NCBI RefSeq assembly: GCF_900172355.1
Contig: NZ_FWFZ01000033.1
Location: forward strand, 1-35,644
DNA from: Roseisalinus antarcticus
GTDB taxonomy: Bacteria; Pseudomonadota; Alphaproteobacteria; Rhodobacterales; Rhodobacteraceae
DNA: 35,644 nucleotides
Direction: 5' to 3'
The translations under genes were made by a program, and so were the position numbers. Within the stretch, counting starts at the first letter, position 1. Each line of letters starts with the position of its first letter. Below are positions 795 through 27,456 of the stretch, piece after piece. The notes under the pieces are model-generated. The model ran no database searches. It saw nothing but the letters and a program-made list of their open reading frames with translations, and was not told where the DNA came from.

Positions 795-2042
795 TCAGTT
801 CATGCCAAGCTCCATGCGCAAGGTATCGGCCAGATCTGAAATGGTCGCCTCCACGTCGGCGCCCTCCGTTACCTCGACCATGGCCGCCGCGATCAGGTCG
901 GTCACGGCGACGCCTTCAGAACCCGGAAAGGCATACCAGGGTCCGGCATACCGGGCGACCTGTGCATGGGCGATGCGGGCATTCTCGTTGGCCACATAGT
1001 AAGCGCCGAGATATGCCTCATCCTCCAGCACCAGCGCGTTCGCGGGCGCGTAGCCGGTGTTCTCGACGATGATGCGCTGCCCGTCCGGGCCGGTGACGAA
1101 GGCCATGTACTCCCAAGCGGCGTGCTGCACCTCCGGGTCATCGGACAGCATCACGATGGCCGAGCCGCCGGTCGGGAAATACACTGTCGACGCGTCCTCG
1201 GCGACCACCGGAAGCGGGCGCACCATCACCTCGAACCCGTCTCCCGCGCCTTCCTCGAACCGGGTCAGCAGGGCGGAGCTGTCGAACATGATGCCAAGCG
1301 TGCCAGCCGGAAAGGCCTGCCGGGCATCGTTTTCCGACATGGACGACATGCCCGCCTCAGCCGCGAAACGCTGGTAGATTTCGCCCGCCGCAAAGCCCGC
1401 GGCGTCGTCGAAGGCAATGTCACTTTCGTCCGGCGTCATCGGGCGGCCGCCGTGAGACCCGAGCAGCGACTGGAAGCGCCAGTCATGGCGGGCGATCCAG
1501 ACGCCTTCGGTGGTGTCGCTCAGCGCGTTGATCGCGGCGGCAAGCTCGATCACGCCGTCGAAGGTCGTCGGAAAGTCCTCCACCGACCCGCCCGCCTGCT
1601 CGATGAGCATCGGGTTCACATACATCACCAGCGTCGAGCCGGAGGTGCCGAGCGCCCACTGGGTATCCTCGAACCGGCCGAGCGACAGGAGCGCCGGGGT
1701 ATAGCCCGCAGCGGCCGGATCTTCGGGCAGGAACGGGTCGAGCGGTTGCAGCACGCCACGATCTTCCAGCACGCGCCAGAGGTTGAGGCCGACGTAGGCC
1801 ACATCGGGCGCAGTACCCGCGATGCCTTCGCGCAAGAGGCGCTGGACGCCTTCCTCGTAGCCTTCGGCCGGTCCGTCGATCACCACCGTGATATCGGGAT
1901 TGGCGGCCATGAAGGCCTCGGCCAGCGCGGTCTGGGTGTCGGCCCAGATCGTGGGAATGGCGTAGTGGACGCGGATTTCGGTCTGGGCGGTCGCCGCAGT
2001 TGCGGCAATGGCCAGACCGGCGGACAGCAGGATGTTCTTCAT
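795..2042 (-). CDS. ABC transporter extracellular solute-binding protein (family 1, UgpB/MalE-like)
   Basis: Periplasmic ligand-binding component of a carbohydrate or glycerol-phosphate-type ABC importer. The protein of 415 residues starts with a signal peptide (MKNILLSAGLAIAATAATA, cleavage after ATA) and continues with the usual family-1 pattern: AEAFMAANPDITVVIDGP, then APDVAYVGLNLWRVLEDRGV. I chose the ATG at 2042 because it begins the signal peptide and has an AGGAAAG ribosome site. A longer frame opens at 2123, overlapping the stop of the upstream permease by four bases, but it would put 27 non-secretory residues in front of the signal. It is the last gene of a five-gene operon; binding proteins are often first. 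The ligand cannot be read from sequence; glycerol-3-phosphate, a glycerophosphodiester or a sugar are all possible. Confidence 0.88.
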   Translation of the reverse strand: MKNILLSAGLAIAATAATAQTEIRVHYAIPTIWADTQTALAEAFMAANPDITVVIDGPAEGYEEGVQRLLREGIAGTAPDVAYVGLNLWRVLEDRGVLQPLDPFLPEDPAAAGYTPALLSLGRFEDTQWALGTSGSTLVMYVNPMLIEQAGGSVEDFPTTFDGVIELAAAINALSDTTEGVWIARHDWRFQSLLGSHGGRPMTPDESDIAFDDAAGFAAGEIYQRFAAEAGMSSMSENDARQAFPAGTLGIMFDSSALLTRFEEGAGDGFEVMVRPLPVVAEDASTVYFPTGGSAIVMLSDDPEVQHAAWEYMAFVTGPDGQRIIVENTGYAPANALVLEDEAYLGAYYVANENARIAHAQVARYAGPWYAFPGSEGVAVTDLIAAAMVEVTEGADVEATISDLADTLRMELGMN

Positions 2043-2119
2043 GGTCTTTCCTCGGGGGTTGAGTGTGGCGTTGTCTGAACGGATTTCCGGCCATTCGGCC
2101 TTGGCTTGCTGCTCGGTCC

Positions 2120-2938
2120 TCATCTCTTGATCCCCGCCCCGGCGAGGCCTTGGGTGAAGCGGCGCTGCGCCAGCAGGAAGGCCAGGATCAGCGGGGCGGT
2201 CACGAGGGTCGCGCCCGCCATCAGCGGACCGATGTCATCGCCGCTTTCCTGGTCGCGGAAATACAGGATGCCGCGCGGAGGCGTGGCAAGGCCCGGGTCG
2301 GTGGTCGCGATCAGCGGCCAGAACAGATCGTTCCAGTGCGCGGTGACCGAAAAGATTGCAAAGGCGATGACGGTGGGCATGCCGAGGGGAAAGGCCACGC
2401 GCCATGCGATGCCCATCTCCGACATGCCATCGATGCGCGCGGCGTCGATCAGCTCGGCCGGGATCTGCGCAAAGGCCTGTCGCAACAGGAACAGGCCAAA
2501 GGCCGTGGCGACAAACGGTACGATCAGCGCCGTATAGGTGTTGAGGATGCCGATCTGGCTGAACCCCAGAAAGATCGGGATCGCCGTGACATGAAACGGC
2601 ACCAGCAGTGCCGCCACGATGGCCCCGAACAGCAGCCCCCGTCCGGCAAAACGACGATGTGCCAGCGCAAAGGCGCAAGGCACCGAGATCGCGATTTGCA
2701 GCACGAGAATGCCGAGGGTCACGATCGCGCCATTCAGAAGGTAGAAGGTAATGTCAGTTTCGGTCAGAACGGTCCAATAGTTCGACAATGTCGGCTGGCG
2801 CGGCAGCAAGAAAACATCGGGTGTGAAGATTTCTTCGCGTGGCTTGAGCGAGACCGACACCATCCAGACAAAGGGCAGCATCACAATGACCGCGCCCAGA
2901 CTGATCAGGCCGAGGGAGAGGATCGTCGCCGGTCTCAT
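2120..2938 (-). CDS. ABC transporter permease, MalG/UgpE type
   Basis: Inner-membrane subunit of the importer encoded by this operon; 272 residues with about six hydrophobic segments. The cytoplasmic EAA loop that contacts the ATPase is clear: ELIDAARIDGMSEMGIAWRV followed by AFPLGMP. The C-terminus ends in the family's TQGLAGAGIKR, similar to the GGGVKG or GAVKG ends of MalG-like permeases. Its start overlaps the stop of the previous permease gene by four bases (ATGA), which indicates translational coupling. It pairs with the MalF-type permease at 2935-3822. UgpE is the best-known relative with this gene context, but the substrate is not proven. Confidence 0.88.
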   Translation of the reverse strand: MRPATILSLGLISLGAVIVMLPFVWMVSVSLKPREEIFTPDVFLLPRQPTLSNYWTVLTETDITFYLLNGAIVTLGILVLQIAISVPCAFALAHRRFAGRGLLFGAIVAALLVPFHVTAIPIFLGFSQIGILNTYTALIVPFVATAFGLFLLRQAFAQIPAELIDAARIDGMSEMGIAWRVAFPLGMPTVIAFAIFSVTAHWNDLFWPLIATTDPGLATPPRGILYFRDQESGDDIGPLMAGATLVTAPLILAFLLAQRRFTQGLAGAGIKR

Positions 2939-3822
2939 CTGTAATGCACCCGACGTTCGACCACCGCGATCTGGATCGCGGTCAGAAGCAAGAGCGCCGC
3001 AAAGAACACGACGGTGATAGCGCTGGCGTAGCCGGCCTTGAAGTAGACGAACCCCTCCCGGTAAAGCGCGTAGACGATGGTGTCGGAGGCGAAGGCCGGC
3101 CCGCCCTGCGTCATGGTCGCCACGGTCTCGAACACCCGGAATGCATTCGCGGCGGTCACGATCATCACGAACAGCGTCGTCGGCCCGAGCATCGGCCAGG
3201 TCACGACCCAGAACCGGCTCCAGCCGCCTTCCGCCCCGTCGACCGCCGCAGCGTCATAGAGCGTGGGCGGGATCGCGGCGAGACCGGCGAGAAACAGCAC
3301 CATGTTGTAGCCGACGCTTTGCCAGACACCGATGGCCGCAAGCGTGTAGAGCACGAGGCCCCGGTCGCTCAGCCATTGCCGGGACGGCAGGCCAAGACCG
3401 GCCAGCCACTGGTTCACGAGCCCCAGCGAAGGATGCAGCAGCATCTGCCAGGCCACGGCCATCGCCACGAGGGTCGCAGCTACGGGCAGGAAATAAACAG
3501 CGCGCAGCACCGCAGAGACGCGCGGCACCGTGTGGGCAATCCCGTGCAGGCCCAGCGCCACGAGAAGCCCGAGGCCCACCGAGGCCGGGATGACGATGGC
3601 GGCATAAACCAGCGTGTTGATGAGCGCGTTGCGGCCCAGTCGCGATCCGAACAGATCCGCGTAGTTGCCGAGCCCGACCCATTCGAACCTTGTGGCTCCG
3701 AACTGGTAGTCCGTGAAGGACAGGACGACGACGACAGCCACCGGCAGGAAGATGAACACGACCAGCGCCAGCGCCGCAGGCCCGACGAGAACAAGATCGA
3801 TGACGGCGCGGCGCAGCATCAT
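2935..3822 (-). CDS. ABC transporter permease, MalF/UgpA type
   Basis: Second membrane subunit of the operon's importer; 295 residues with about six transmembrane segments. Supporting motifs are FEWVGLGNYADLF near residue 47, the EAA loop TLYDAAAVDGAEGGWSRFWV with VTWPMLGP, and the typical TQGGPAFASDTIVYALYREG segment after it. Two adjacent ATG codons (3822 and 3819) could start it. The upper one overlaps the ATPase stop codon. It is of UgpA length; MalF of E. coli is much longer. Confidence 0.88.
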   Translation of the reverse strand: MMLRRAVIDLVLVGPAALALVVFIFLPVAVVVVLSFTDYQFGATRFEWVGLGNYADLFGSRLGRNALINTLVYAAIVIPASVGLGLLVALGLHGIAHTVPRVSAVLRAVYFLPVAATLVAMAVAWQMLLHPSLGLVNQWLAGLGLPSRQWLSDRGLVLYTLAAIGVWQSVGYNMVLFLAGLAAIPPTLYDAAAVDGAEGGWSRFWVVTWPMLGPTTLFVMIVTAANAFRVFETVATMTQGGPAFASDTIVYALYREGFVYFKAGYASAITVVFFAALLLLTAIQIAVVERRVHYR

Positions 3823-4901
3823 GCGATCTCCACTCTCTGCCCATCGATGTCGAAGGCGTGCACGGCCTCAGGCGACGCCGACAGGTGGATGCGACTGCCC
3901 TGATCCGGCACCGAAGCCGCGCCGCGCAGCACGGCACGCAGGACGATGTCGCCCGGCCCCCGCAGGCTCAGGATGCTTTCCTCGCCATGATACGCGGCGC
4001 TTTCCACGAAGGCGTCGAGAGCGCCATCTGGCGTGATCCGCAGATCCTCGGGCCGGATGCCCAGATCGAACCTCGCGCCCATGGGGTGCACGGCCGCTGC
4101 GGGGCCGGACGGGATCATGTTCATGCGATTATGGCCGATGAACGCGGCAACGGCGCGCGACCCCGGGCGCTTGAACACGCTTTCGGGCGATCCGACCTGA
4201 ACGATCCGTCCGTCGATCATCACGGCAACCCGGTCGGCCATCGACAGCGCATCGGATTGATCATGAGTGACGAGCAGGAAAGGGTAGCCGGTGGTCTTGT
4301 GCAGCGCGCGGATTTCATCGCGGGTGTCGGCGCGCAGCTGGGTGTCGAGGTTGGACAGCGGTTCGTCGAGCAAGAACGCTGACGGATCCCGCACGAGGGC
4401 GCGGGCTAGCGCAACCCTTTGCTGCTGCCCTCCCGACAACTGACCTGGCTTGCGCGCAAGCAGCGGATCCAGCCGGAGCATTTCGGCGATCCGGCGGACC
4501 TGCGCGTCGATCGCGTCAAGTTTGCGCCCCACTGGCGCCCGCAGGATTGCCGCCCCCGGCAGTCTCTCAAGGACCGACAGGCGGCGCAGGCGCAGCGGCA
4601 TCGCGATGTTCTGGTAGACCGTCAGGTGCGGATAAAGCGCATAGGATTGGAACATGAGCGCGACGTTGCGGGCGGCGGCGGTGTCGCGCGTCGCGTCGGC
4701 CCCGCGGAGCAGGACCCGCCCGGCGCTGACCTGATCCAGCCCGGCCAGCAGGCGCAGCGTTGTGGATTTGCCACAGCCCGAGGCGCCCAGCAGCGCAACA
4801 AACTCGCCCTCGCGCAGATCGAGCGACACATCCTCGACCGCGACCGTGTCACCAAAGCGCTTGGTGGCGTGATCGAGGGAAAGAACGGGCTTGCCGGTCA
4901 T
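3819..4901 (-). CDS. ABC transporter ATP-binding protein, UgpC/MalK type
   Basis: Energy-coupling ATPase for the permeases at 2120-3822. All nucleotide-binding motifs are present: Walker A GASGCGKST, Q-loop LMFQSYALYPHLTV, signature LSGGQQQRVALARAL, Walker B AFLLDEPLSNLD and switch histidine LVTHDQSDAL. The C-terminal third contains a MalK-type TOBE/OB region (GIRPEDLRI). At 360 residues it has normal family length. A stretch between Q-loop and signature (near LERLPGAAILRAPVGRKLD) is longer than in most relatives and may be a small helical insertion. It overlaps the SLOG gene stop upstream and the permease start downstream by four bases each. Confidence 0.92.
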   Translation of the reverse strand: MTGKPVLSLDHATKRFGDTVAVEDVSLDLREGEFVALLGASGCGKSTTLRLLAGLDQVSAGRVLLRGADATRDTAAARNVALMFQSYALYPHLTVYQNIAMPLRLRRLSVLERLPGAAILRAPVGRKLDAIDAQVRRIAEMLRLDPLLARKPGQLSGGQQQRVALARALVRDPSAFLLDEPLSNLDTQLRADTRDEIRALHKTTGYPFLLVTHDQSDALSMADRVAVMIDGRIVQVGSPESVFKRPGSRAVAAFIGHNRMNMIPSGPAAAVHPMGARFDLGIRPEDLRITPDGALDAFVESAAYHGEESILSLRGPGDIVLRAVLRGAASVPDQGSRIHLSASPEAVHAFDIDGQRVEIA

Positions 4902-5569
4902 GTGGCAGAACTTTCACATGGATCCGTTCGCCCGGCGGCCACGGCGACGGCCGCCAATGCAGCGAGAGCCAGGGCGATGGCGGCATCGACGCTGTTGGCA
5001 CGCTGTACGCCTTCGACGTCCGGTGCGCCTTCGAGGCCGATGACCGCCTTACCGAAATGCAGGCCATAGGCCACCTCGGTCAGTGTCCCGTAAGAACCGC
5101 CAACCGCGATCAGCACCCGGGCGGATTTCGCGATGATCATGTTCCGTGCTTCCCCGAGGCCGGTTGGCAAGGCGATGCCGACAAAACGGTTCGCCTCGTC
5201 CGGGGTGCTGCCGGGCAGGATCCCGATGGCCAGCCCACCTGCGGCGGAAACACCTTTGCTGACCGCCTCCATGACACCTGAGCGGCCGCCGCAGATCACG
5301 GTGAGGCCGAGCGCACCAAGCGCCGCGCCGACGGCTTCTGCGGCGGAGCTTTCGGCTACGCTCGCTTCGCGGGGGCCGATCACGCCCACGACCAGATGCC
5401 GGAGCGGCACCGTCCGGGACAGCGCCGCCAGGGCCTCTTGCGCGCTGACGTCACGACCACCGGCCTTCGCGCCCTGCGCCGCAGGGGCGGTATGCCAGGA
5501 CTTCGGATCAAGGCGTTGGCCGTTGATGAAGACCGAGCCGTCCGTATGAAGGATGAAGCTGAGCGACAT
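4898..5569 (-). CDS. TIGR00725-like SLOG/LOG-fold protein, first gene of the transporter operon
   Basis: A Rossmann-like protein of about 223 residues in the SLOG (LOG/DprA-like) group. Visible family marks are GVIGPREASVAE, the glycine-rich GGRSGVMEAVSKGVSAAGG, PTGLGEARNMIIAKSARVLI and GGSYGTLTEVAYGLHFGKAV. The last corresponds to the PGGxGTxxE nucleotide-binding and catalytic motif of LOG phosphoribohydrolases. LOG proteins cleave nucleoside monophosphates at the base-ribose bond; other SLOG proteins only bind nucleotide-like ligands. I cannot assign either activity here. The ATG at 5569 is preferred; an in-frame TTG lies two codons upstream. As promoter-proximal gene of an ABC importer operon it may act on, or sense, the imported compound. 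That is inference. Confidence 0.8.
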   Translation of the reverse strand: MSLSFILHTDGSVFINGQRLDPKSWHTAPAAQGAKAGGRDVSAQEALAALSRTVPLRHLVVGVIGPREASVAESSAAEAVGAALGALGLTVICGGRSGVMEAVSKGVSAAGGLAIGILPGSTPDEANRFVGIALPTGLGEARNMIIAKSARVLIAVGGSYGTLTEVAYGLHFGKAVIGLEGAPDVEGVQRANSVDAAIALALAALAAVAVAAGRTDPCESSAT

Positions 5570-5587
5570 TGCCAAAACTCTGGAAGC

Positions 5588-5605
5588 CTGTAAGATACCT
5601 TACAG
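5588..5605. promoter_or_regulatory. Palindromic operator candidate in divergent promoter
   Basis: CTGTAAG (5588-5594) and its exact reverse complement CTTACAG (5599-5605) are separated by four bases. The site lies between the SLOG operon and the DeoR-family gene, where an autoregulating DeoR/GlpR repressor would be expected to bind. Function is inferred from position and symmetry. Confidence 0.55.
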
Positions 5606-5623
5606 TTGGCAGTTTCATGACAC
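5606..5623 (-). promoter_or_regulatory. PHO-box-like site facing the ABC operon
   Basis: On the minus strand the sequence reads GTGTCAT-GAAA-CTGCCAA. These are two heptamers with a period of 11 bp, matching the PhoB consensus CTGTCAT at 6 of 7 and 5 of 7 positions. It directly abuts the palindrome at 5588-5605 and lies about 37-54 bases upstream of the ATG at 5569. Confidence 0.4.
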
Positions 5624-5629
5624 AGGTTT

Positions 5630-6397
5630 ATGACGGTGCAGCATTCGGCCCCGCCACTTTCGCAGCGCCAGTCCGCAATCCTTGACCGGGTGATGGCGAA
5701 CGGCTATGTCACTATCGACGCCCTCGCGGCCGAGTTTGGCGTATCCGCGCAGACCGTCCGGCGCGACATCATCGCCCTTTCGGAAGCCGGTCAGTTGCAG
5801 CGGTTTCATGGTGGCGCAGGACCTGCCGACGCGATGGAGGCCGCACGCCTCGATTACGCCGCCAAACGTGAATTGGGCAAGCCCGCCAAGACTGAGGTCG
5901 CGCGCAAGGCCGCCGCCCTGATCCCCGATGGCGCGGCGCTGTTTCTCGATGTCGGCACGACGATCGAGACCTGCGCGCGAGAACTGGCCCGTCGCAAAGG
6001 CTTCACCATCTTCACCACCTCGATGCGAGCGGCGATGGCCTTTGACCCGCGCAGCCATGCAGTCTACGTGCTGGGTGGCCGACTTGCCGGGAAAGACGGC
6101 TCTCTGGTGGGCGAGGATACCGTGCAGAAACTGGCCTCCATCCATCTCGACGTCGCCCTGATCGCCTGTTCAGCCATCGACGAGACGGGGCGGGTGATGG
6201 ATTTCGACCTGTCCAAGATCGCGGTCAAACGAGCAGCAATGGCTGCCTCGGCACGATCCATGTTGCTGTCGACCCGCAGCAAGTTCGATCGCACCGCGCT
6301 GGGAAAGATCGCCGATATCGGCGATTTCAGTGCGGTCGTGACAGAGGATCACCCCGAGACCTCCCTTGCCTTGGTGCAGGCGCCGTTGCAGGAGTGA
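5630..6397 (+). CDS. DeoR/GlpR-family transcriptional regulator
   Basis: A 255-residue regulator. An N-terminal winged helix-turn-helix carries the DeoR signature (RQSAILDRVMANGYVTIDAL, then FGVSAQTVRRDIIALSEAGQ and LQRFHGGA). A sugar-phosphate-isomerase-like effector domain follows: DVGTTIETCARELARR, TSMRAAMAF and GGRLAGKDGSLVG. Members of this family typically repress catabolic operons and respond to phosphorylated sugars or glycerol-3-phosphate. It is transcribed divergently from the SLOG-ABC operon across a gap of about 60 bases that holds a palindrome, so control of that operon and itself is likely. GlpR is the nearest well-known relative by pattern, but I do not assign the symbol. Confidence 0.88.
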   Translation: MTVQHSAPPLSQRQSAILDRVMANGYVTIDALAAEFGVSAQTVRRDIIALSEAGQLQRFHGGAGPADAMEAARLDYAAKRELGKPAKTEVARKAAALIPDGAALFLDVGTTIETCARELARRKGFTIFTTSMRAAMAFDPRSHAVYVLGGRLAGKDGSLVGEDTVQKLASIHLDVALIACSAIDETGRVMDFDLSKIAVKRAAMAASARSMLLSTRSKFDRTALGKIADIGDFSAVVTEDHPETSLALVQAPLQE

Positions 6398-6550: not shown

Positions 6551-7402
6551 TCAACCTTTCACGCCACCGCCCGCGAAGCCCTGCAAGACGTATTTCTGCC
6601 CGAGCACATAGATCAGGATCAACGGCAAGGTTGAGGCGACCGAGCCCGCCATCAGCAAGGTCCATTCCGACTCGAACTCGCCCACGAACCGCATCAGGCC
6701 CAGCGGCACGGTGCGCAGCTCGGGCGAATTGAGATAGAGCAGCGGGCGGAGCAGCTCGTCCCAGTTGTTGATGAACGCGATCACGAAGATCGAGATCAGC
6801 GCCGGCCGAGCCAGCGGCAGGTAGACCCGCCAGAAGATGCGGAACGGTCCTGCGCCGTCGATCCGCGCCGCCTCGCCGTATTCGCCGGGCAGGCTGGCGA
6901 AGTATTCGCGCAGCATGAAGGTGCCGAAGGAGCCGACAAGGAAGGACGGCACGATCAGCGGCAGGAACGAATCGACCCAGCCAAGGCCCCGCATCAGCAG
7001 GAACTCGGGGATGATCGTTACCTCGGTCGGCACGAAAGCGGTTGCGAGGATGAGGGCGAAGATCACGTTCTTGCCGGGCAGCTCCATCCTCGCGAAGGCA
7101 TAGCCTGCCAGCGCGCAAGTCGCCATTTGCCCGAGCGCCGCCGTGGTCGAGACGAAGAAGGAATTGCGAAAATAGAGCAGGAAATCATGCTGCGTCAGAA
7201 CTCGCGTGTAATTGCCGAATGGCTCGGGCCCTTGGAGCATGGTCGGCACGAAGCTGGGCGGAAGGCGGAACACGTCGCGGCTTTCCTTGAAGCTGGTGAT
7301 CAGCATCCACGCAAAGGGCATCAACGTGATGGCGGCATAGGCCAGCAGCACGGCATAGAGCGCGACAAGGGCGGGCGCGCGCCGGAGTGCGACGTCATTC
7401 AT
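6551..7402 (-). CDS. ABC transporter permease, MalG/UgpE type (second system)
   Basis: Membrane subunit of 283 residues with about six transmembrane segments. The EAA loop reads EYGEAARIDGAGPFRIFWRV followed by YLPLARP. The end, LQGFAGGGVKG, is the classic C-terminus of the MalG group. Its start overlaps the MalF-type permease gene by eight bases. It is the last gene of the three-gene minus-strand operon and converges with the DeoR-family gene. The intervening 150 bases (6398-6550) show no clear gene or terminator. Its ATPase is probably the one at 10696-11793, encoded on the other side of the divergent promoter. Confidence 0.88.
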   Translation of the reverse strand: MNDVALRRAPALVALYAVLLAYAAITLMPFAWMLITSFKESRDVFRLPPSFVPTMLQGPEPFGNYTRVLTQHDFLLYFRNSFFVSTTAALGQMATCALAGYAFARMELPGKNVIFALILATAFVPTEVTIIPEFLLMRGLGWVDSFLPLIVPSFLVGSFGTFMLREYFASLPGEYGEAARIDGAGPFRIFWRVYLPLARPALISIFVIAFINNWDELLRPLLYLNSPELRTVPLGLMRFVGEFESEWTLLMAGSVASTLPLILIYVLGQKYVLQGFAGGGVKG

Positions 7403-8348
7403 GCACCCACCTCCGCCGCAGATAGAAGTTCAGGAGCGTGATCAGCCCGATCGCGAAGCACAGAATATAAGCGAGCGCCGAGGCATAGCCCAATTCGAAA
7501 TGCACGAAGGCGTTCTGGTAGATGTAGAAGGCGAGCGTGGTCGACGCCCGGTTCGGCCCGCCATTGGTCAGGGCATAGGTGATCTCGAAGGTCTGGGTGG
7601 ACCGCACCAGCGCGAGGATCAGCACGAAGAACAGGCTGCGCGACAAGAGCGGCAGGGTGATGGCGTAGAACCGCCGGAACGGGCGGGCGCCGTCGACACG
7701 GGCGGCCTCGTAGTAGCCGGGATCGATGGTCTGAAGGCCCGCGATCAGCAAGATCATGTAAAAGCCCGCATCCTTCCAGACCGACACGATGGCGACGGCC
7801 GGCAGCGCCCATGCCGGGTCGGCCAACCAGGGCACGCCATCGAGGCCGATACCGCCGAGCAGGTGATTGAGCAGCCCGAACCGGGTGGAGAATATCCAGC
7901 GCCAGGCAAGTGTGACGGCGACGGTTGCGGTGATGTAGGGCAGGAAGAACGCGCCACGAAAGAAGGCTGAGGAGCGCAGGGAGTTGTTGAGCAGCACCGC
8001 CAGTGTGACGGACACAATCATCACGCCCGGGACGTACATCGCCGTGAACCACAGCGTGTTGCCCAGAACCTCTCGCGAAACGGGTGAGGTCAGGATATGG
8101 GCATAGTTCGACAGCCCCACCCATTCGATATCGTCAAAGATCCGCCAGCTTGTGAAGGACAAGGCAAAGGACCAACCGATGGGGATCAGCCGGAAAACCA
8201 TAAGCCCGACGATCGCGGGCAGCAAGAAGACGATCGCCGGTGCCCAAGCTTTCCACCGGGAACGACGTTGGCGCAGTGAGCCTTGCGTGGAAGGCATTTG
8301 CGCGCGCGCCCCGTCCCGGGGCACGCGCGCTGTGGATGCCTCGTTCAA
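7395..8348 (-). CDS. ABC transporter permease, MalF/UgpA type (second system)
   Basis: Membrane subunit of about 317 residues. A basic, flexible N-terminus of about 30 residues precedes the first membrane helix (APAIVFLLPAIVGLMVFRL). Further marks are IEWVGLSNYAHIL, the EAA loop GYYEAARVDGARPFRRFYAI with TLPLLSR, and LTNGGPNRASTTLAFYIYQN. The start used here is a TTG at 8348 that overlaps the binding-protein stop (TTGA). An internal ATG at 8297 is an alternative that would remove 17 residues. Partner of the permease at 6551-7402. Confidence 0.87.
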   Translation of the reverse strand: MNEASTARVPRDGARAQMPSTQGSLRQRRSRWKAWAPAIVFLLPAIVGLMVFRLIPIGWSFALSFTSWRIFDDIEWVGLSNYAHILTSPVSREVLGNTLWFTAMYVPGVMIVSVTLAVLLNNSLRSSAFFRGAFFLPYITATVAVTLAWRWIFSTRFGLLNHLLGGIGLDGVPWLADPAWALPAVAIVSVWKDAGFYMILLIAGLQTIDPGYYEAARVDGARPFRRFYAITLPLLSRSLFFVLILALVRSTQTFEITYALTNGGPNRASTTLAFYIYQNAFVHFELGYASALAYILCFAIGLITLLNFYLRRRWVHE

Positions 8349-9610: not shown

Positions 9611-9627
9611 CAAGGTCATGGGGTATC

Positions 9628-9645
9628 CTGTCATTAAAACTTCAT
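9628..9645 (+). promoter_or_regulatory. PHO-box-like site in the divergent promoter
   Basis: CTGTCAT-TAAA-ACTTCAT: the first heptamer matches the PhoB consensus exactly and the second at 4 of 7 positions, with the expected 11-bp period. It lies about 120 bases upstream of the PHP gene. A weaker two-heptamer site on the opposite strand (9698-9715) may serve the binding-protein operon. Confidence 0.4.
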
Positions 9646-9666
9646 CATTCGCCGGATGGACTGCCG

Positions 9667-9692: not shown

Positions 9693-9723
9693 AGCGGGTG
9701 ATGCTTTTGTGACATCGCGCCCC

Positions 9724-9756: not shown

Positions 9757-9765
9757 GGCGGGACA

Positions 9766-10695: not shown

Positions 10696-11792
<1,097 letters not shown>

Positions 11793-11793
<1 letters not shown>

Positions 11794-17518: not shown

Positions 17519-17654
17519 CAAATTGGCCCTACTGGAAAACTGAGACGAGACCGCATTTGTGTTGTCAGCACAGTCCTATCGGCATGCCAGTACAGAACTG
17601 TCACATTAGCTTGATAAAGGGGGTCCAAGATTTCCTGAACAAGAGGCCCCCGTC

Positions 17655-18638: not shown

Positions 18639-18639
18639 T

Positions 18640-20379: not shown

Positions 20380-20400
20380 CGGGGCAGGGTGAACGGATCG

Positions 20401-21444
20401 TCAGACCTCCGGCAGAATCCATCCGTCGCGGATGTTCAGGCGCAGCGTATCGCCGGGTTCGGGTCTGTCCGTCAGGCTGACAGGCACAGGCTGCGCCACC
20501 CCATCCAGCAGGGCCACCGCGTCCCAGTGGTTGCCGCGGAATGTCCGGCTCACGATCCGCGCCGGGATGCCGTCATCGCCCGCCACCACCTGCTCTGGCC
20601 GCAAAAGCAGTTGCGCGGGGCCGGGGCTGGTCCCATCGGGGCACGCCACGCTGGCCGCCGTACCGCCGAGCCGGATTCTCGCTCTTCCGCCGACGACCGA
20701 CAGCACCTCGACGGGAAGAAGCGCGCCCTTGCCGATGAAACCCGCCACCCGGGCGGTTGCCGGGCGGGCGTAAACTTCTTCCGGCGGGCCGGATTGCAGG
20801 ATGCGCCCGTCCCACATCACGGCAATGCGCCCGGCAAGGGCCATGGCCTCGTGCTGGTCATGGGTGATGTAGAGCGTCGTCGCGGCGCTGTTGCGGTGAA
20901 AGGCGGCCAACTCCTCCTCCATGGTGGCGCGCAGATGCGGGTCGAGATTGGCCAGCGGCTCGTCCATCAAGATCGTTCGCGCACCCTGCGCAAGACACCG
21001 CGCCAGCGCGACCCGTTGCCGTTGACCGCCCGACAGATCCGCAGGCCGCCGCGCTGCCAAGGCGGTCAGCGCGACGGTTTCAAGGTGCCGGGCCGCTGCC
21101 AGACGCGCTGCCTTGCCGCTCATCCCCGCCGTTTCGAGCGGGAAGGCCACGTTGCCCTCGACCGTTATATGCGGCCAGAGCGCGTAGGACTGGAACACCA
21201 CCCCGACGCTGCGATCCTCGGGCGGGACATGCAGATGCGGTCCTGCGACGCGCGCGCCATTAAGCGAAATGGTCCCTTCATCCGGCCGCTCCAGCCCTGC
21301 GATCAGCCGCAGCAGGGTAGACTTGCCACATCCCGACGGGCCCACGACGACAAAGAACGTGCCTGCAGGGATATCCAATGTGACCCTGTCCACCGCCGTC
21401 TTGCCGGCAAAGCGGCGGGTGACACCGTTCAGTCCGATGCTCAT
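20401..21444 (-). CDS. ABC transporter ATP-binding protein, PotA/FbpC-like
   Basis: ATPase of about 347 residues: Walker A GPSGCGKST, Q-loop VVFQSYALWPHITV, signature LSGGQRQRVALARCL, Walker B TILMDEPLANLD and switch histidine YITHDQHEAMAL, then a TOBE-like tail (LLLRPEQVV). I start it at the ATG at 21444 (MSIGLNGVTRRFAG); the frame is open for 27 further codons upstream without a ribosome site. It most likely powers the permease at 18640-20379 although it is encoded on the opposite strand, downstream of the GDPD gene. Confidence 0.85.
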   Translation of the reverse strand: MSIGLNGVTRRFAGKTAVDRVTLDIPAGTFFVVVGPSGCGKSTLLRLIAGLERPDEGTISLNGARVAGPHLHVPPEDRSVGVVFQSYALWPHITVEGNVAFPLETAGMSGKAARLAAARHLETVALTALAARRPADLSGGQRQRVALARCLAQGARTILMDEPLANLDPHLRATMEEELAAFHRNSAATTLYITHDQHEAMALAGRIAVMWDGRILQSGPPEEVYARPATARVAGFIGKGALLPVEVLSVVGGRARIRLGGTAASVACPDGTSPGPAQLLLRPEQVVAGDDGIPARIVSRTFRGNHWDAVALLDGVAQPVPVSLTDRPEPGDTLRLNIRDGWILPEV

Positions 21445-21525
21445 GACTGCATTCTCTGTTGCTCCGGGCCTCAGGTGACGTGACTCATCCGCCTGCGGCG
21501 AGCGACTGACGGCGCGACGGGGCAA

Positions 21526-22971
21526 TCATCGCTCGCACGCCATCGGTTGAAACGTCTTGCCGTCGAGGTGACGAACAAAGGCGAAGGGCTGATCCAGGTT
21601 GACCATGTCGGGTCGCATGTCCACGATCCTGTCGAACACGTCCCCATCCCGGCCCATATAGGCGATCATGCTAGCCACCGGGCCGTCGCGCAGGGCCGCC
21701 ACCTCGGCGGCGTCGGCATCCGGTCGAAACTCGATGATCGCGGGGGCAAGGGTCGCCAGCGCAACGTCGAGGCTTGGATGGTCTTCGCGCCGGACCATGA
21801 TCCTGGCCGCGGCGCTGTCCTGGCGCAAGGCGCGCAGCAGGTCCATGTCGAACGACCAGAAAAAGCACCGCTGTTCAAGCCCGGCTGCCTGGACCGCGGC
21901 CCAGACCTGCCCGGGTGCGGCATCCTTCAGCTCCAGGTACAGGCCGCCATCGTACTTCACTGCGAGGGCGAGCACCTCGTCCAGGGTCGGAATCCGGACG
22001 TTGTTGAAGAATGGATCAAACCAGCCGCCTGCGTCGTGCAGGCGCAATTCGGTCAGGCTGTGGGCATCGACGCGCCCCGTGCCATCGGTCGTGCGATCCA
22101 GAGTCGCGTCATGGATCGCCACGATCGTTCCGCAGGCGGTGACGCGCAGATCGGTCTCGGCCATGGCGAAACCGGCGGCCAGCGCACATTCCAGCGCTGG
22201 CAGGGTGTTTTCCGGCGCAATGCCGTTGGCCCCCCGGTGGCACACGATCCGGAGCGGCCTGCCATCGGGTGGGGTGAAGGGGTTTACCATCTCGGGGCGG
22301 TCCGAACAGATGCCCAGGACCGGCTTGCCGCGGATCGCGGCCATCCGGGCGGGATCTTCCTCGTGCCAGAGCACGACGCGCTGCCCGGCGTCGAAAGCCC
22401 TTCGGAAGAAATCAGGGGTCAGGGTGTCCTGCGGCCGTTCCAGCCGTTCCCAGCACAGGTGGATCACACCGGCCCCCGCTGCATGAACGAAGGGATCTGC
22501 CTGCAGCGGCACCAGCGCCGAGCGGGGATAGGGGCACTCTGCCTGTTTCAGCATGGCGGCCGCCTCGGGGGCAAAGGCACCCAGGATCGCGCGGTCGATC
22601 CCATGCCTGCGCAGGATGGCGAGGGCCGGCAGGACCGCGTCGAGATCCTTGATGTCGGCATAGATCCCTGTACCCGACTGCGCGGCAAGTGCTGCGACGT
22701 CGTCGAGGGTGGGACAGGGGGCACATGCGGCACGTGTCCGGCTCAGGATGTCGGCATAATCCATGTCGCGAACCGCCGTGCCGTCCGCAAGTTCCGCATC
22801 GTGATGGGCAATGACGATGCCGTCGCGGCTGCAGCGGATGTCCACCTCCCACATATCGGCGCCAAGGGTGTGGGCCTTCTCGGAAGCTGAAAGGGTGTTG
22901 CCCGGTGCATAGGCCTGTGCGCCCCGGTGGGCGATGGACAGCGGGCGCGGTGGCAGGGTCCAATCGTTCAA
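21526..22971 (-). CDS. Tandem-domain glycerophosphodiester phosphodiesterase (UgpQ-like role)
   Basis: 481 residues with two GDPD barrels and no signal peptide. Domain 1 has HRGAQAYAPGNT near residue 15, WEVDI and IAHHDAEL. Domain 2 has HRGANGIAPENT near residue 245, AETDLR, IHDATLDRTTDGTG and LYLELKD. In domain 1 the catalytic and metal-binding Glu of the PENT motif is Gly24, so that half may be inactive or altered, while domain 2 looks complete. The start is a TTG at 22971 overlapping the stop of the UgpC-type ATPase (TTGA). GDPDs release glycerol-3-phosphate and an alcohol from glycerophosphodiesters; the ABC-plus-GDPD order recalls ugpBAECQ. About 80 bases separate it from the next ATPase gene. 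Confidence 0.9.
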   Translation of the reverse strand: MNDWTLPPRPLSIAHRGAQAYAPGNTLSASEKAHTLGADMWEVDIRCSRDGIVIAHHDAELADGTAVRDMDYADILSRTRAACAPCPTLDDVAALAAQSGTGIYADIKDLDAVLPALAILRRHGIDRAILGAFAPEAAAMLKQAECPYPRSALVPLQADPFVHAAGAGVIHLCWERLERPQDTLTPDFFRRAFDAGQRVVLWHEEDPARMAAIRGKPVLGICSDRPEMVNPFTPPDGRPLRIVCHRGANGIAPENTLPALECALAAGFAMAETDLRVTACGTIVAIHDATLDRTTDGTGRVDAHSLTELRLHDAGGWFDPFFNNVRIPTLDEVLALAVKYDGGLYLELKDAAPGQVWAAVQAAGLEQRCFFWSFDMDLLRALRQDSAAARIMVRREDHPSLDVALATLAPAIIEFRPDADAAEVAALRDGPVASMIAYMGRDGDVFDRIVDMRPDMVNLDQPFAFVRHLDGKTFQPMACER

Positions 22972-24011
22972 ATCCGCTCTCCATCCGTCGAGAATGCCAG
23001 AAGCCGGTCGCCGCGCACCCCCCAGTCGACACTGTCGCCGATGGCGTGGCCATGGCCCGAGGGCAGGATCGCCCGCAAGGCTTCGCCGCCGGTCAGGCGC
23101 ACGTCGATCAGATCCTCGCGGCCCTGTGGCTCGACAAAGGTGATCGTGCCGCGCAGGCCCTGCCCGAATTGCGGCCCCAGATGCTCGGGCCGCAGTCCCA
23201 GCGTGATCGGGCCCTGTCCGGCAAGGCGGTCGGGGCGCGGCAGGCTGTTGCCTCCCGAAAGCGTGATCCGCTCGCCAAGATGGGCCGGCAGGAACGAGAT
23301 CGGCGGATTGCCCATGAACCCGGCGACGAACTGATTGGCAGGATTCTCGTACATCTGCACCGGCGTGGCGAGCTGTTCGATCTGACCGGCGCGCATCAAT
23401 GCGATCCGGTCGCACATCGACATCGCCTCGACCTGATCGTGGGTGACAAGGATTGCTGTGATGCCGGTTTCGCGCTGCACCCTGCGGATCTCGGTGCGCA
23501 TCTCGAGGCGCAGCTTGGCATCCAGATTTGCCAGAGGTTCATCCAGCAACAGCACATCGGGTTCGCGCACCATCGCGCGGGCCAGGGCCACGCGTTGTTG
23601 CTGCCCGCCCGACAGTTGGGCCGGTTTGCGATCCAGCAATTCCCCGATGTGGACCAGTTCGGCGATCGCGCCGACCTTGCGCGTGATGGTGGCCCGGTCG
23701 TGGCGTTTCACGCGGAGGGGAAAAGCGATGTTGTCGGAGACCGACATATGCGGATAGAGCGCGTAATTCTGGAACACGACCTTCACCGAACGACGCTGAG
23801 CGGGCAGGGTCGTCACATCGCGGTCGCCGAAATGCAGGCTGCCGCCATCCATCCGGTGGATGCCGCAGATCGCGAACAGCGTCGTGGATTTGCCACAGCC
23901 CGAGGGCCCCAGCAGCGCCAGCATTTCACCGGCGCCGACATGCAGGTCCATCTCGGAAATGACCGTGGTCGCACCGAACCGCTTGGTGAATTTGGACAGG
24001 ATCAGTTCCAT
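22968..24011 (-). CDS. ABC transporter ATP-binding protein, UgpC/MalK type (third system)
   Basis: 347 residues: Walker A GPSGCGKST, Q-loop VVFQNYALYPHMSV, signature LSGGQQQRVALARAM, Walker B VLLLDEPLANLD and switch histidine LVTHDQVEAMSM. The C-terminal TOBE region includes GFMGNPPISFLPA and LGLRPEHLGPQ. The ATG at 24011 overlaps the stop of the permease gene upstream, and its own stop overlaps the GDPD start. It belongs to the third Ugp-like operon, which has lost its 5' end. Confidence 0.92.
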   Translation of the reverse strand: MELILSKFTKRFGATTVISEMDLHVGAGEMLALLGPSGCGKSTTLFAICGIHRMDGGSLHFGDRDVTTLPAQRRSVKVVFQNYALYPHMSVSDNIAFPLRVKRHDRATITRKVGAIAELVHIGELLDRKPAQLSGGQQQRVALARAMVREPDVLLLDEPLANLDAKLRLEMRTEIRRVQRETGITAILVTHDQVEAMSMCDRIALMRAGQIEQLATPVQMYENPANQFVAGFMGNPPISFLPAHLGERITLSGGNSLPRPDRLAGQGPITLGLRPEHLGPQFGQGLRGTITFVEPQGREDLIDVRLTGGEALRAILPSGHGHAIGDSVDWGVRGDRLLAFSTDGERI

Positions 24012-24853
24012 CAGCCCTTGGTGCCGCCGCCGTAAATGTTCATCAGACGTTTCTGGAAAATCAGGTAGATCACTATGACCGGCCTTGTGTAGAACATGCC
24101 GATTGCCTTGAAAAGGCCGAAATCCTGTGTGGTTTCGCTGGCAATGACTGCGTTCATGTAGGTGGCCAGCACCTGTGCCCCCGCGCCCGGCGCAAGCACC
24201 AACGGCAGCACGAACTCGGACCAGCCCGACAGGAAAGAGATGATCAGCAGCGCCGCCAGCCCCGGTTGCACCTGGGGCAGAACCAGGCTCCACCACACGC
24301 GGAACCGGCTGGCGCCATCCTGAACCCCGGCCATCTCTATCTCCCACGGCACGGTGTCGTAGAACCCCTTCATGATCCAGATGCCGAAGGGCAGTTCCAG
24401 CGCCGCCTTGACAAGAATCACACCGGCCAACGTGTCATAAAGCCCGAGATACTGAAGGATGATGAAGATCGCGATGATCAGGGTGATCGTGGGAAAGGCG
24501 TGCAGCACGATCAGCCCGGCCAGAAAGAACCGCCGCGCCGGAAAGTTCAGCCGCGACAGCGCATAGGCTGCCGTCAGCGAAAAGGCGCAGACCGAAAGCG
24601 ATGTGACCGAAGCGAAGACGAAGGTGTTGAAGGTCACCTGCCAGATGCCCGGCCGACCGCTGTCCACGCTTTCCCACAGGAACCGCCAGTTGTTCAGGTC
24701 GAACCCGGTGGGCCACAGGGCTCCGGGCGCAGGGCTGGCCACGCTGTCGATGATCTGAAAGGCATACATGATGACCAGTGGCGCCGACATCGCCGACAAA
24801 ACGGCAACCAGGTGCCAGATCCGCAGGCCAGGTACCGCTGCGGTCCGGCTCAC
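24011..24853 (-). CDS. ABC transporter permease, MalG/UgpE type (third system)
   Basis: 280 residues, starting at a GTG that overlaps the stop of the preceding permease gene (GTGA). About six membrane segments; EAA loop WEIEMAGVQDGASRFRVWWS with LVLPQVQP; C-terminal RLMNIYGGGTKG typical of the MalG group. It is intact itself, but its MalF-type partner is truncated and no third binding protein is found in the window. This transporter therefore cannot work as encoded here. Confidence 0.86.
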   Translation of the reverse strand: MSRTAAVPGLRIWHLVAVLSAMSAPLVIMYAFQIIDSVASPAPGALWPTGFDLNNWRFLWESVDSGRPGIWQVTFNTFVFASVTSLSVCAFSLTAAYALSRLNFPARRFFLAGLIVLHAFPTITLIIAIFIILQYLGLYDTLAGVILVKAALELPFGIWIMKGFYDTVPWEIEMAGVQDGASRFRVWWSLVLPQVQPGLAALLIISFLSGWSEFVLPLVLAPGAGAQVLATYMNAVIASETTQDFGLFKAIGMFYTRPVIVIYLIFQKRLMNIYGGGTKG

Positions 24854-25165
24854 TGCTCGATCCTCGGACGCGCGACCAGATCGCGGAAGTTGAAAAACCG
24901 CATGTAGGTCAGCGACAGCGCGATCCCGATGATCACGAGGACCAGCGCATAGGCCGCGCCCAGCCCGTATTCCAGATTGCCGCCGTAATTGTTCAGCGCC
25001 GTGTGATAGGCCGCCAGCGACCACACCTCGGTGCCGCGCCCCGGGCCGCCGTCGGTGGCCAGAAGGATGTATTCGAACGACGTCAGCAGCGACAGCGTCT
25101 GATACGAGGTCACGAACAGGATCGGCCAGCGCAGTTGCGGCACGATGATGTGGCGCACCTGTTGC
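24850..25165 (-). pseudogene. 3' fragment of a MalF/UgpA-type permease (third system)
   Basis: Only the last third of the permease remains: RWQQVRHIIVPQLRWPILFV (the end of the EAA loop), FEYILLATDGGPGRGTEVWS and two more membrane helices up to RPRIEQ. The N-terminal helices and the first half of the EAA motif are missing. Upstream of about base 25165 the sequence is phage terminase material on the opposite strand. The break has removed the promoter, the N-terminus and probably a binding-protein gene of the operon. Confidence 0.8.
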
Positions 25166-25179
25166 CAACGGTTGGTGTT

Positions 25180-25565: not shown

Positions 25566-25809
25566 GCGAGGACAGCGAGGTCCGCCGAAGACCGGAGATG
25601 CAGGCAACGGGGCAGTCCCGCTGCTGAACTGATTCATGATGAACCCCCGTCCCGCTTGCGATGCTCAGCACCCGAATGGCACCTAATTCGCGGGGGAATT
25701 ACCGGCCGCCCCTCGCTCATCGCCGCCAGCAACGCCGCGCCCGGGACGCCCCCGGCTCTGTAACCGAGCCTCATCGGGCTGAGGACGACGGGATGCGGGC
25801 CGGCGCGCC
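25566..25809. other. Junction between terminase remnant and phoD-like gene
   Basis: No gene recognised. The stretch is GC-rich, and the open frames on both strands lack family motifs and ribosome sites. No obvious target duplication or attachment core was seen at either end. Confidence 0.4.
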
Positions 25810-27456
25810 TCAGGTCGTGGCGAAGCTCAGGGAGGCGTCCGACTTCACGATGCGCCCGCGGAAAAGCTCGACCGTCTCGTAGTCCGTCGACATCACCGTA
25901 TCGACGCCGATCACGGTCACCACCGCCTCCTCGCGGCCCAGCACGACGCGAATGTAGCCGTTGTGCAGCCCATCCGTCCAATGCACCTCGGGCATGTTCT
26001 CCGCATAAATCATGTCGAGTCTCCGGCCGACCTCGGGGTCAAGGCCCGTGTCAACGTATTCGCTCGGCGAGGAAATGCCCGCCGTGCCGAGCTCGATACC
26101 CATGCGGCGGCCCTCGTCGTCCATGAGCTCGGCGGCGAAGAACTGGTGCGTGTCGCCGGTCAGCACAAGCAGGTCCTGTGCGCCCGACTCGCGGGCCATG
26201 TCGTAGAAGGCTTGGCGCGCCTGCGGATAGCCGTCCCAGGTGTCGGTGTACCAGGGCCAGTTCCACTGCCCGTGATCGGCCAGGTACTTCAGTCCGTCGG
26301 AGAGCTCCTCACGCGAGATGCCAAGGGAGACGATGTCGGGGATGTTGAACCGCTCGAAGGGGCTCGCGGAGCCGACGAGCCGCCACGGCTCGCCCGCCGT
26401 CACCGACGCCATGATGCTCGACCGGGCGTCCGCTACCATCTCCGGCGCCAGCATCTGGCGGTTCGGCGCGACGATCAGCTCCTGCCAAGCGCGGTCGCGA
26501 TCCTCCTGCGTCTCGATCTCGGTCCAGTCGGGGTAGGCAGGCTCCTGGTCGCGGCCCGTGTGGCGGGTCTCGAGGATCACAAAGGTCGCGAGATCTCCGA
26601 ACCTGTAGGTGCGCCAGTAGCGCATTCTGGGCTCGGGTTCGCGGATCGGCATCCACTCGAAATACGCCTGCAGCGCGTTCGCGCGGCGGGTCTCCCAGTC
26701 GCCCTCCTCTTCGGGCTGGTGGTTCTGGGCACCTCCGGTCCAGGGGTTGTTCGTGACCTCGTGGTCGTCCCAGCACGCAACGAAGGGGTGGGCGGCGTGC
26801 ATCGCCTGCGCCCCGGCGTCGGTTTTGTACTGCGCATGGCGCTGCCGGTAATCGGCCAGCGTCACGATCTCCTTGTCGGGCAGGCTCTCGCGATCCAGCG
26901 CCTCCGCAACCGCGCCGCCCCAGTCCTCCGTGGAGTACTCGTAGATGTAGTCGCCCGTGTGAAAGACGAAATCGACCTCTTCGTCCCGGGCGATCGCATC
27001 GTAAGCGTTAAAGTGGCCGAGCGGATAGTTGGTGCAGGACGCCACCGCAATGCCGAGCCGGTCGAGCGGGCCTTGCGGAAGGGTCCGGGTGCGGCCGACG
27101 GGCGAGTTCTCCTCCCCGACGGTAAACCGGTAGAAGTAGACGCCGCCCGGCTCGAGCCCGTCGGGGACCACCTTCACCGTATGGTCGCGCTCGGCCGAGG
27201 TCGTGGCCTCACCCTCCGCGACAACGGTGGCGAAGTCGGCATCGGCGGCGACCTGCCACCGGGCCGACGGGGTCGCCTCGTCCGACGACAGCCGTGTCCA
27301 GAGCACGACGCTGGTCGCGTCCGGGTCGCCACTCGCGACGCCGTGGCGGAACGCGCCCTCGGCCGGTTCCTGCGCGAATGCCTGGCGCCCGGCGGCGCTC
27401 ACGGTGCCCGCCACGGCGAGGAGCTTCAGCGTCTCACGTCGATTCAACCGTACCAT
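25810..27456 (-). CDS. phoD: PhoD-family alkaline phosphatase/phosphodiesterase, Tat-exported
   Basis: 548 residues. A twin-arginine signal (NRRETLKLLAVAGTVSAAG) predicts export of the folded enzyme. An N-terminal fibronectin-like PhoD domain (GVASGDPDATSVVLWTRL) precedes the metallophosphatase domain: CTNYPLGHFNAYDAIARD, FVFHTGDYIYEYS, WDDHEVTNNPW, LETRHTG and VLTGDTHQFFAAEL. These hold the Asp, Asn and His ligands of the PhoD iron-calcium centre. The ATG at 27456 has a GGAGG ribosome site. PhoD enzymes release phosphate from diesters and monoesters in the periplasm. The gene is alone and is flanked on both sides by pieces of one prophage. A PHO-box-like site lies about 105 bases upstream. 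Confidence 0.93.
   Translation of the reverse strand: MVRLNRRETLKLLAVAGTVSAAGRQAFAQEPAEGAFRHGVASGDPDATSVVLWTRLSSDEATPSARWQVAADADFATVVAEGEATTSAERDHTVKVVPDGLEPGGVYFYRFTVGEENSPVGRTRTLPQGPLDRLGIAVASCTNYPLGHFNAYDAIARDEEVDFVFHTGDYIYEYSTEDWGGAVAEALDRESLPDKEIVTLADYRQRHAQYKTDAGAQAMHAAHPFVACWDDHEVTNNPWTGGAQNHQPEEEGDWETRRANALQAYFEWMPIREPEPRMRYWRTYRFGDLATFVILETRHTGRDQEPAYPDWTEIETQEDRDRAWQELIVAPNRQMLAPEMVADARSSIMASVTAGEPWRLVGSASPFERFNIPDIVSLGISREELSDGLKYLADHGQWNWPWYTDTWDGYPQARQAFYDMARESGAQDLLVLTGDTHQFFAAELMDDEGRRMGIELGTAGISSPSEYVDTGLDPEVGRRLDMIYAENMPEVHWTDGLHNGYIRVVLGREEAVVTVIGVDTVMSTDYETVELFRGRIVKSDASLSFATT

What the first reader, a model, noticed from the sequence alone, without database searches (positions are those of the whole stretch)
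795..27456. Candidate phosphodiester-scavenging island with several uptake systems and six hydrolase families
Within about 27 kb there are three Ugp/MalK-type ABC systems (two complete), one iron/aminoethylphosphonate-type ABC system, and GDPD, PHP, NAGPA, EEP, PP2C-like and PhoD enzymes. Each family acts on phosphoesters, and several specifically on diesters. The combination suggests uptake of several phosphodiesters (glycerophosphodiesters, sugar-1-phosphodiesters, possibly phosphonates) with cytoplasmic cleavage. The family calls are from motifs; the common purpose is inference.
Basis: partly seen in the sequence, partly recalled or inferred. Interest (0 to 1): 0.75.

Follow-up and report, generated by a model that had tools for sequence, protein, structure and literature searches.

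The report
Composite cluster of organophosphate importers
A bacterial DNA stretch carries several separately inherited import systems for phosphorus-containing small molecules, some with signs of being switched on by phosphate starvation; one pairs a sugar-type importer with an enzyme family known from animals for cutting sugar-phosphate diesters, and that pairing recurs in distant bacteria.

Summary
The genes are real, but this is not one island. Four independently inherited ABC modules plus EEP and PhoD lie between fragments of decayed phages and insertion sequences. M1 (795-6397): UgpB-group importer; its binding protein has all four phosphate-contact residues of UgpB. M2 (6551-13981): sugar-type importer with NAGPA, PHP and PP2C-fold enzymes; importer plus NAGPA recurs in Alphaproteobacteria, Chloroflexota and one Thermotogae bin. 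M3 (17655-21447): AfuA/AepX-like importer with a partly kept phosphate loop. M4 (21526-25173): broken GDPD operon; binding protein absent, one permease cut to 107 of 431 residues. EEP is of a family that usually follows an ABC importer, mostly ugpBAEC. A shared phosphorus role is supported statistically: Pho boxes are enriched before M3 and UgpB genes in relatives; a matrix from relatives ranks sites before M1, PhoD and M3 1st, 2nd and 4th of 71,254 window positions (the M1 site may be a DeoR operator; plain box counts in the window are not above chance). M3 lies within 6 kb of UgpB-type genes in 5 of 39 relatives (0.22 expected). Phosphodiester scavenging is thus partly supported; a conserved whole island is not: the one same-genus genome searched lacks all seven proteins tested.

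The parts
795..2123 (-). SBP1, UgpB-group binding protein (M1)
   Evidence: SBP_bac_8/1; best PDB match M. tuberculosis UgpB 6r1b, E 5e-14; all four UgpB phosphate residues present
2120..2938 (-). MalG-type permease (M1)
   Evidence: BPD_transp_1
2935..3822 (-). MalF-type permease (M1)
   Evidence: BPD_transp_1
3819..4901 (-). MalK/UgpC-type ATPase (M1)
   Evidence: ABC_tran + TOBE_2; UgpC subfamily 295 bits, below its cut-off 432
4898..5575 (-). SLOG/TIGR00725 protein, first gene of M1
   Evidence: LDcluster4; TIGR00725 over cut-off; same place in L073, L074 and on a Nitratireductor plasmid
5606..5623 (-). best Pho-box-like site of the window, before M1 (DeoR operator not excluded)
   Evidence: rank 1 of 71,254; p 0.0005
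5630..6397 (+). DeoR/GlpR-type regulator, divergent from M1
   Evidence: DeoRC, HTH_DeoR; same place in L073, L074, L144
6551..7402 (-). MalG-type permease (M2)
   Evidence: BPD_transp_1
7395..8348 (-). MalF-type permease (M2)
   Evidence: BPD_transp_1
8345..9634 (-). SBP2, CUT1 binding protein (M2)
   Evidence: SBP_bac_1/8; relatives; none of the four UgpB phosphate residues
9628..9645 (+). weak Pho-box-like site, PHP side of the M2 divergent promoter
   Evidence: rank 15; p 0.048
9698..9715 (-). weak Pho-box-like site, SBP2 side of the M2 promoter
   Evidence: rank 19; p 0.049 in the window, p<0.05 in 7 of 14 relatives
9769..10683 (+). CehA/McbA-type PHP metallohydrolase (M2)
   Evidence: NF038032 over cut-off
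10696..11793 (+). MalK-type ATPase (M2)
   Evidence: ABC_tran, TOBE_2, OB_MalK
11793..13046 (+). NAGPA-family phosphodiester glycosidase (M2); no signal peptide seen by eye
   Evidence: PF09992; profile matches animal NAGPA structures, E 6e-10; predicted fold (pLDDT 85) matches them
13043..13981 (+). PP2C-fold phosphatase (M2)
   Evidence: fold search; conserved VIDGATD, GxGD, DG and DD motifs
14146..15219 (-). EEP-family hydrolase of the kind that follows ugpBAEC
   Evidence: PF03372; neighbourhoods
17587..17604 (+). Pho-box-like site before FutA
   Evidence: rank 4 of 71,254; p 0.0145
17655..18638 (+). FutA/AfuA/AepX-like binding protein (M3)
   Evidence: SBP families; phnS2 model 126.6 bits, below cut-off 392.75; PDB relatives incl. 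AfuA 4r72 and P5PA 6wce
18694..20379 (+). fused two-domain permease (M3)
   Evidence: two BPD_transp_1 stretches
20401..21447 (-). ATPase of M3
   Evidence: ABC_tran + TOBE_2; beside FutA/FbpB in relatives
21526..22968 (-). double-domain GDPD (M4)
   Evidence: PF03009, two stretches
22968..24011 (-). MalK-type ATPase (M4)
24011..24826 (-). MalG-type permease (M4)
   Evidence: BPD_transp_1
24853..25173 (-). remnant of the MalF-type permease (residues 325-431 of 431)
   Evidence: 84% identity to L076 over 107 residues
25810..27456 (-). PhoD-type secreted phosphatase/phosphodiesterase
   Evidence: PF09423 + PF16655
27561..27578 (-). Pho-box-like site before PhoD
   Evidence: rank 2 of 71,254; p 0.003

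Best explanation
A composite of separately inherited organophosphate-acquisition modules that landed on one contig amid decayed phage DNA, probably under joint phosphate-starvation (PhoB) control. M1 imports a glycerophospho-compound (UgpB/GPC-like pocket) and EEP, of the family that closes ugpBAEC operons, hydrolyses such compounds in the cytoplasm. M2 imports a sugar-containing compound whose sugar-1-phosphodiester bond NAGPA opens, leaving sugar plus a phosphomonoester for PHP and/or the PP2C-fold enzyme. M3 imports a small phosphorylated (or phosphonate) molecule. M4 was a glycerophosphodiester importer and is broken. PhoD releases phosphate outside. Shown by computation: families, residues, gene order, loss in M4, box enrichment in relatives. 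Inferred: ligands, reactions, PhoB binding.
For: SBP1 and its three orthologues have Y/S/S/Y at UgpB Y64, S143, S266, Y342 like 14 of 14 UgpB orthologues aligned; SBP2 (21 rows), SBP3 (7) and k25 (4) have none; in 9 other CUT1-like SBPs of the fetched loci at most two. EEP after an ABC ATPase gene in 17 of 20 neighbourhoods fetched of 31 relatives (one by coordinates only), 12 of UgpB type, and beside GDPD in 3. NAGPA only where SBP2 is (3 of 248 genomes; SBP2 in 4); NAGPA in 14 of 30 SBP2-type loci, among them 4 of 4 Chloroflexota and the one Thermotogae locus. M3 within 6 kb of a UgpB-group gene in 5 of 39 relatives, 0.22 expected; beside phosphohydrolase genes (MBL with His-phosphatase and HAD in 5, MBL with SurE in 3) in others. 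CTGTCA is the top de novo 6-mer before FutA in relatives, 11 of 28 against 21 of 393; box score of 12 or more of 14 in 8 of 29 FutA, 3 of 14 UgpB, 2 of 7 SBP3 and 2 of 419 control upstreams, both of those controls being the M3 ATPase gene of other genomes.
Against: Box counts in the whole window are not above chance: 25 against 18.1 (8 of 100 shuffles as many) and 2 against 2.0. The M1 site may be a DeoR operator: two of three M1 relatives have TGTAAG-N4-CTTACA palindromes there and no significant Pho box. FbpC and the M4 remnant have no significant box in the window (p 0.85, 0.054). The matrix sites were chosen by a consensus fixed beforehand. SBP2 and SBP3 lack the UgpB phosphate pocket; SBP2's closest solved relatives are sugar SBPs. 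The two best PDB hits of FutA by score include one deposited as iron-compound-binding (8x1a). No ligand was tested.
Confidence: 0.62

Rival explanations
1. One functional phosphodiester-scavenging island inherited as a unit.
For: Repeated pairwise neighbourhoods: M2 with M3 in G132 (L034), M1 with M3 in G207 (L058), UgpB with M3 in four others, UgpB beside M4 in L079.
Against: No relative examined holds M1, M2, M3 and M4 together; the one same-genus genome lacks all seven proteins searched; M4 is broken; phage fragments separate the blocks.
Confidence: 0.1
2. A heap of ordinary sugar and iron ABC systems brought together by mobile DNA, with no common purpose.
For: CUT1 importers are common; M3 is annotated like iron systems; mobile debris surrounds every block; window-wide Pho-box counts are at chance.
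Against: UgpB residues in SBP1, EEP-ugp and NAGPA-SBP2 linkages, FutA-UgpB co-location, and Pho-box enrichment before M3 in relatives.
Confidence: 0.2
3. M2 is a plain amino-sugar oligosaccharide system in which NAGPA trims glycan-linked sugars as a carbon source; phosphate is incidental.
For: SBP2 resembles sugar SBPs; relatives add ROK, Gfo/Idh and SIS-domain genes.
Against: NAGPA family chemistry concerns sugar-1-phosphodiesters; relatives add a Na/Pi cotransporter and PhoX lies beside one locus; SBP2-side Pho-box scores have p<0.05 in 7 of 14 relatives.
Confidence: 0.25

Closest known systems
UgpBAEC glycerophosphate importer (E. coli; Phaeobacter UgpB, PMC12718374) and M. tuberculosis UgpB (glycerophosphocholine)
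   Same: M1: CUT1 layout; the four phosphate residues; best PDB match is M. tuberculosis UgpB; EEP family member closes ugp operons in relatives
   Different: SBP1 has Arg where UgpB has Trp188, Gly at Glu88, no Arg393 in the alignment; score far under the UgpB equivalog cut-off (26 against 411); SLOG and DeoR genes attached
AfuABC hexose-phosphate importer, P5PA pyridoxal-phosphate binder, AepXVW aminoethylphosphonate importer
   Same: M3: same SBP superfamily; Ser148/Gly149 of the AfuA phosphate loop invariant in 29 sequences, Ser37 replaced by Thr as in P5PA
   Different: AfuA ring residues His205 and Glu229 are Val, Tyr103 is Leu; only Asp206 kept; far below the phnS2 cut-off
NAGPA (mannose-6-phosphate uncovering enzyme) and bacterial DUF2233 proteins
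   Same: profile and predicted fold match; DGGGS motif invariant in 13 sequences
   Different: no signal peptide seen; operon partner of an ABC importer
ugpQ/GDPD operons
   Same: M4 relatives: SBP, two permeases, ATPase, GDPD, LacI-type regulator, in 4 of 7 an inositol-monophosphatase gene
   Different: in the window SBP3, most of MalF, LacI and the monophosphatase gene are missing

Membership tests
UgpB-group binding proteins (SBP1) | two Tyr and two Ser contacting the phosphate (Y64, S143, S266, Y342 of Phaeobacter UgpB) | tested here: met
UgpB proper (SBP1) | Trp188/191 clamp and Glu88, Gly303, Arg393; equivalog score | tested here: not met
   only Trp191 and Gly303 kept; 26 bits against 411
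UgpB-group binding proteins (SBP2, SBP3) | the same four phosphate residues | tested here: not met
   0 of 4 in 21 SBP2 and 7 SBP3 rows
AfuA (FutA) | His205, Asp206, Glu229 | tested here: not met
   1 of 3; mapping read by eye from the phmmer alignment
AepX/phnS2 (FutA) | TIGR03261 cut-off | tested here: not met
   126.6 against 392.75 bits
Ferric-iron binder FbpA (FutA) | iron-ligand residues | not tested
   no alignment to FbpA was made; FbpA-type chains score lower (32 bits or less) than AfuA (70)
NAGPA family | PF09992 cut-off, NAGPA fold, DGGGS motif | tested here: met
NAGPA activity | cleaves sugar-1-phosphodiesters; catalytic residues | not testable with these tools
   catalytic residues were not mapped one by one
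PP2C phosphatases | PP2C fold and Asp motifs | tested here: met
   (model of middling confidence)
GDPD and PhoD | Pfam cut-offs | tested here: met
Pho regulon (M2, M3, PhoD) | Pho box in the promoter | tested here: inconclusive
   enriched in relatives of M3; window sites p 0.003 to 0.049; total counts at chance
Pho regulon | induction by phosphate starvation | not testable with these tools
   no expression data

The most novel reading that the evidence does not exclude
M2 is an unrecognised, phylum-spanning pathway: a CUT1 importer that brings intact sugar-1-phosphodiesters (probably of an N-acetylhexosamine) into the cytoplasm, where a bacterial NAGPA frees the sugar and PHP/PP2C-type enzymes free the phosphate, in the Pho regulon of Rhodobacteraceae and carried by some Agrobacterium plasmids together with ROK, SIS and a Na/Pi cotransporter.
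Probability: 0.4. Interest if true: 0.72.

Novelty: new variant of a known kind. Interest (0 to 1): 0.5.

Why it matters
If right, sugar-1-phosphodiesters join glycerophosphodiesters as phosphorus sources taken up whole, and a large family of bacterial NAGPA proteins gains a nutritional role that can be tested. It would also show that AfuA-like 'iron' systems of Rhodobacteraceae are organophosphate importers of the Pho regulon, and that an EEP enzyme takes the place next to ugpBAEC that UgpQ holds in E. coli.

Tried and rejected
Whole-island conservation: rejected (see rivals). Genomic-island composition: GC is 0.60-0.68 throughout, no clear step at the modules. tRNAs and Rfam families: none. 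SBP3 elsewhere in the genome: no match at E 1e-10 (the tool warns that an empty answer without a positive genome shows little). Plain Pho-box counting: at chance; upstream tests with a first consensus on both strands gave mixed values, so a fixed second consensus on the gene strand was tested against 419 control upstreams and then a matrix. The third-ranked matrix hit (6509-6526) lies in no promoter that I recognise. Literature searches for NAGPA with ABC transporters gave nothing on point in the titles and abstracts listed; for AfuA with PhoB only listings, none read. Metagenome and viral collections were not scanned.

Papers: PMC12718374, outline, first of six parts and two sections read; PMC4546632, PMC8427247, PMC8316502 and PMC4415409, passages only; all others, listings only.
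Full report
Observation. The third CUT1 system is a remnant. The window is the whole of contig C65. Close relatives of M2 lie in Rhodobacteraceae and Rhodobacterales records, so the host is inferred to be of that group.

Modules. Relatives separate the content into four ABC modules. M1 (SLOG, ATPase, two permeases, SBP1, divergent DeoR) recurs in the same order in L073 and L074 and on a Nitratireductor plasmid; SBP1 at 68% identity or more is in 3 of 247 relatives, the next best being 37%. M2 SBP2 is in 3 relatives at 67-86%. M3 FutA is in 39 relatives at E 1e-40. M4 GDPD is in 8 relatives, 7 of which have the full SBP3-PermF3-PermG3-ATP3-GDPD-LacI order. G065, the only same-genus genome in the draw of 248, has no match to any of the seven proteins searched. 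PHP relatives occur in 68 of 248 genomes including the own one, but apart from two at 80-86%, which sit with M2, they are about 55% or less identical; among the 20 neighbourhoods fetched, only those two show the M2 genes around PHP.

M1 and EEP. A 2025 paper gives the UgpB phosphate contacts. SBP1 has all four; SBP2, SBP3 and k25 have none. Other SBPs in the fetched loci: after leaving out 20 re-called copies of SBP1 and SBP2 from 34 rows, 5 have three of four (UgpB-like, three of them cut or gapped at the first position) and 9 have at most two. The UgpB identity of cluster k6 rests (E 2e-106 to 9lff). EEP: 31 relatives at E 1e-25, 20 neighbourhoods fetched. An ABC ATPase gene stands immediately upstream in 16 and in L102 by coordinates; of these 17, 12 are UgpB type (L112 judged with the overlapping L086), 4 are k25 type and one is at a contig end. 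L093, the closest relative (57%), has GDPD instead; L094 and L107 have neither.

M2. NAGPA at E 1e-20 is in 3 of 248 genomes and SBP2 in 4; all three are shared, which by chance has probability about 2e-6 if genomes were independent, which they are not. The genome-contig scan returned 30 loci, of which L142 is only 20% identical and four are shorter than 6 kb; NAGPA is found in 14 of the 30 by tblastn: Alphaproteobacteria, 4 of 4 Chloroflexota and one Thermotogae bin, whose NAGPA reading holds one stop. Three of the 30 loci are the same contigs as G080, G132 and G020. Loci without NAGPA often carry ROK, Gfo/Idh and PP2C-type genes. On Agrobacterium fabrum pAt1D132b the order is ROK, SBP, two permeases, phosphodiester glycosidase, ROK regulator, UgpC-type ATPase, SIS protein, Na/Pi cotransporter. 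From this I infer import of a sugar-1-phosphodiester, release of the sugar by NAGPA, and phosphate release by another enzyme.

M3. Best solved relatives are 8x1a (deposited as an iron-compound binder), AfuA 4r72 and, further down, P5PA 6wce. The AfuA phosphate loop is partly kept and its sugar-ring residues are not; Thr60 is variable in the family. M3 adjoins M2 in L034 and M1 in L058, and UgpB-group genes lie within 6 kb in 5 of 39 relatives against 0.22 expected for random placement (P 3e-6 by Poisson; relatives are not independent). Other M3 loci carry phosphohydrolase genes.

Pho control. In 28 FutA upstreams of other genomes CTGTCA is the most enriched 6-mer, 11 of 28 against 21 of 393; for 14 FbpC upstreams it is not among the top ten. 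With a fixed consensus, scores of 12 or more of 14 are found in 8 of 29 FutA (window included, itself at 10), 3 of 14 UgpB, 2 of 7 SBP3 and 2 of 419 controls. A matrix from 21 such sites, none from the window, ranks sites before M1, PhoD and FutA 1st, 2nd and 4th among 71,254 window positions, EEP 12th, M2 15th and 19th. Resampling p values: M1 0.0005, PhoD 0.003, FutA 0.0145, EEP 0.0235, PHP 0.0475, SBP2 0.049, PermG3 0.054, DeoR 0.31, FbpC 0.85, uncorrected for nine tests. Against this, simple box counts in the window are at chance, and the M1 site may be a DeoR operator, since L074 and L144 have palindromes there. The E. coli consensus CTGTCAT and the two-promoter control of ugp were seen in passages of PMC4415409.

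Decay and mobile DNA. PermF3 survives as residues 325-431; terminase small- and large-subunit fragments begin two bases beyond. PhoD lies between that terminase fragment and a portal C-terminus with a head-protease N-terminus. Truncated phage genes also flank M1 on the left (1-659) and lie in the EEP-FutA gap. A chimeric assembly is not excluded.

Verdict. A composite, partly decayed set of organophosphate uptake modules of known kinds; the NAGPA-linked importer is the part that looks new.

Noticed in passing
window 1-659, about 16.9-17.5 kb, 25175-25760, 27710-28220, 30449-34536, 34898-35197: Fragments of phage genes (ParB-methyltransferase, amidase end, two different terminase small subunits, terminase large, portal end, head protease start, tail protein end, peptidase) lie between the cargo blocks, as if the modules sit in the wreck of at least two phages.
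   Followed up: partly
window 25810-27456: PhoD, with a good Pho-box-like site before it, lies between a truncated terminase large-subunit gene and a truncated portal gene.
   Followed up: partly
window 28615-30062: Transposase remnants in different frames, and DNA matching a VTT-domain protein/APC permease stretch of a Roseicitreum plasmid.
   Followed up: partly
window 4898-5575: A SLOG/TIGR00725 gene heads the M1 operon in the window, in two relatives and on a Nitratireductor plasmid; its role beside an importer is unknown.
   Followed up: partly
L074:12515-12700 and L144:14748-14947: TGTAAG-N4-CTTACA palindromes between the SLOG and DeoR genes, likely the DeoR operator.
   Followed up: no
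L095, L097, L098, L100: A second importer type (binding protein k25, without the UgpB phosphate residues) is followed by EEP and by a second EEP or GDPD gene.
   Followed up: partly
G000:C144:19477-20748 and G000:C105:91015-91440: The genome holds a second UgpB-group SBP and a second NAGPA-domain gene on other contigs.
   Followed up: no
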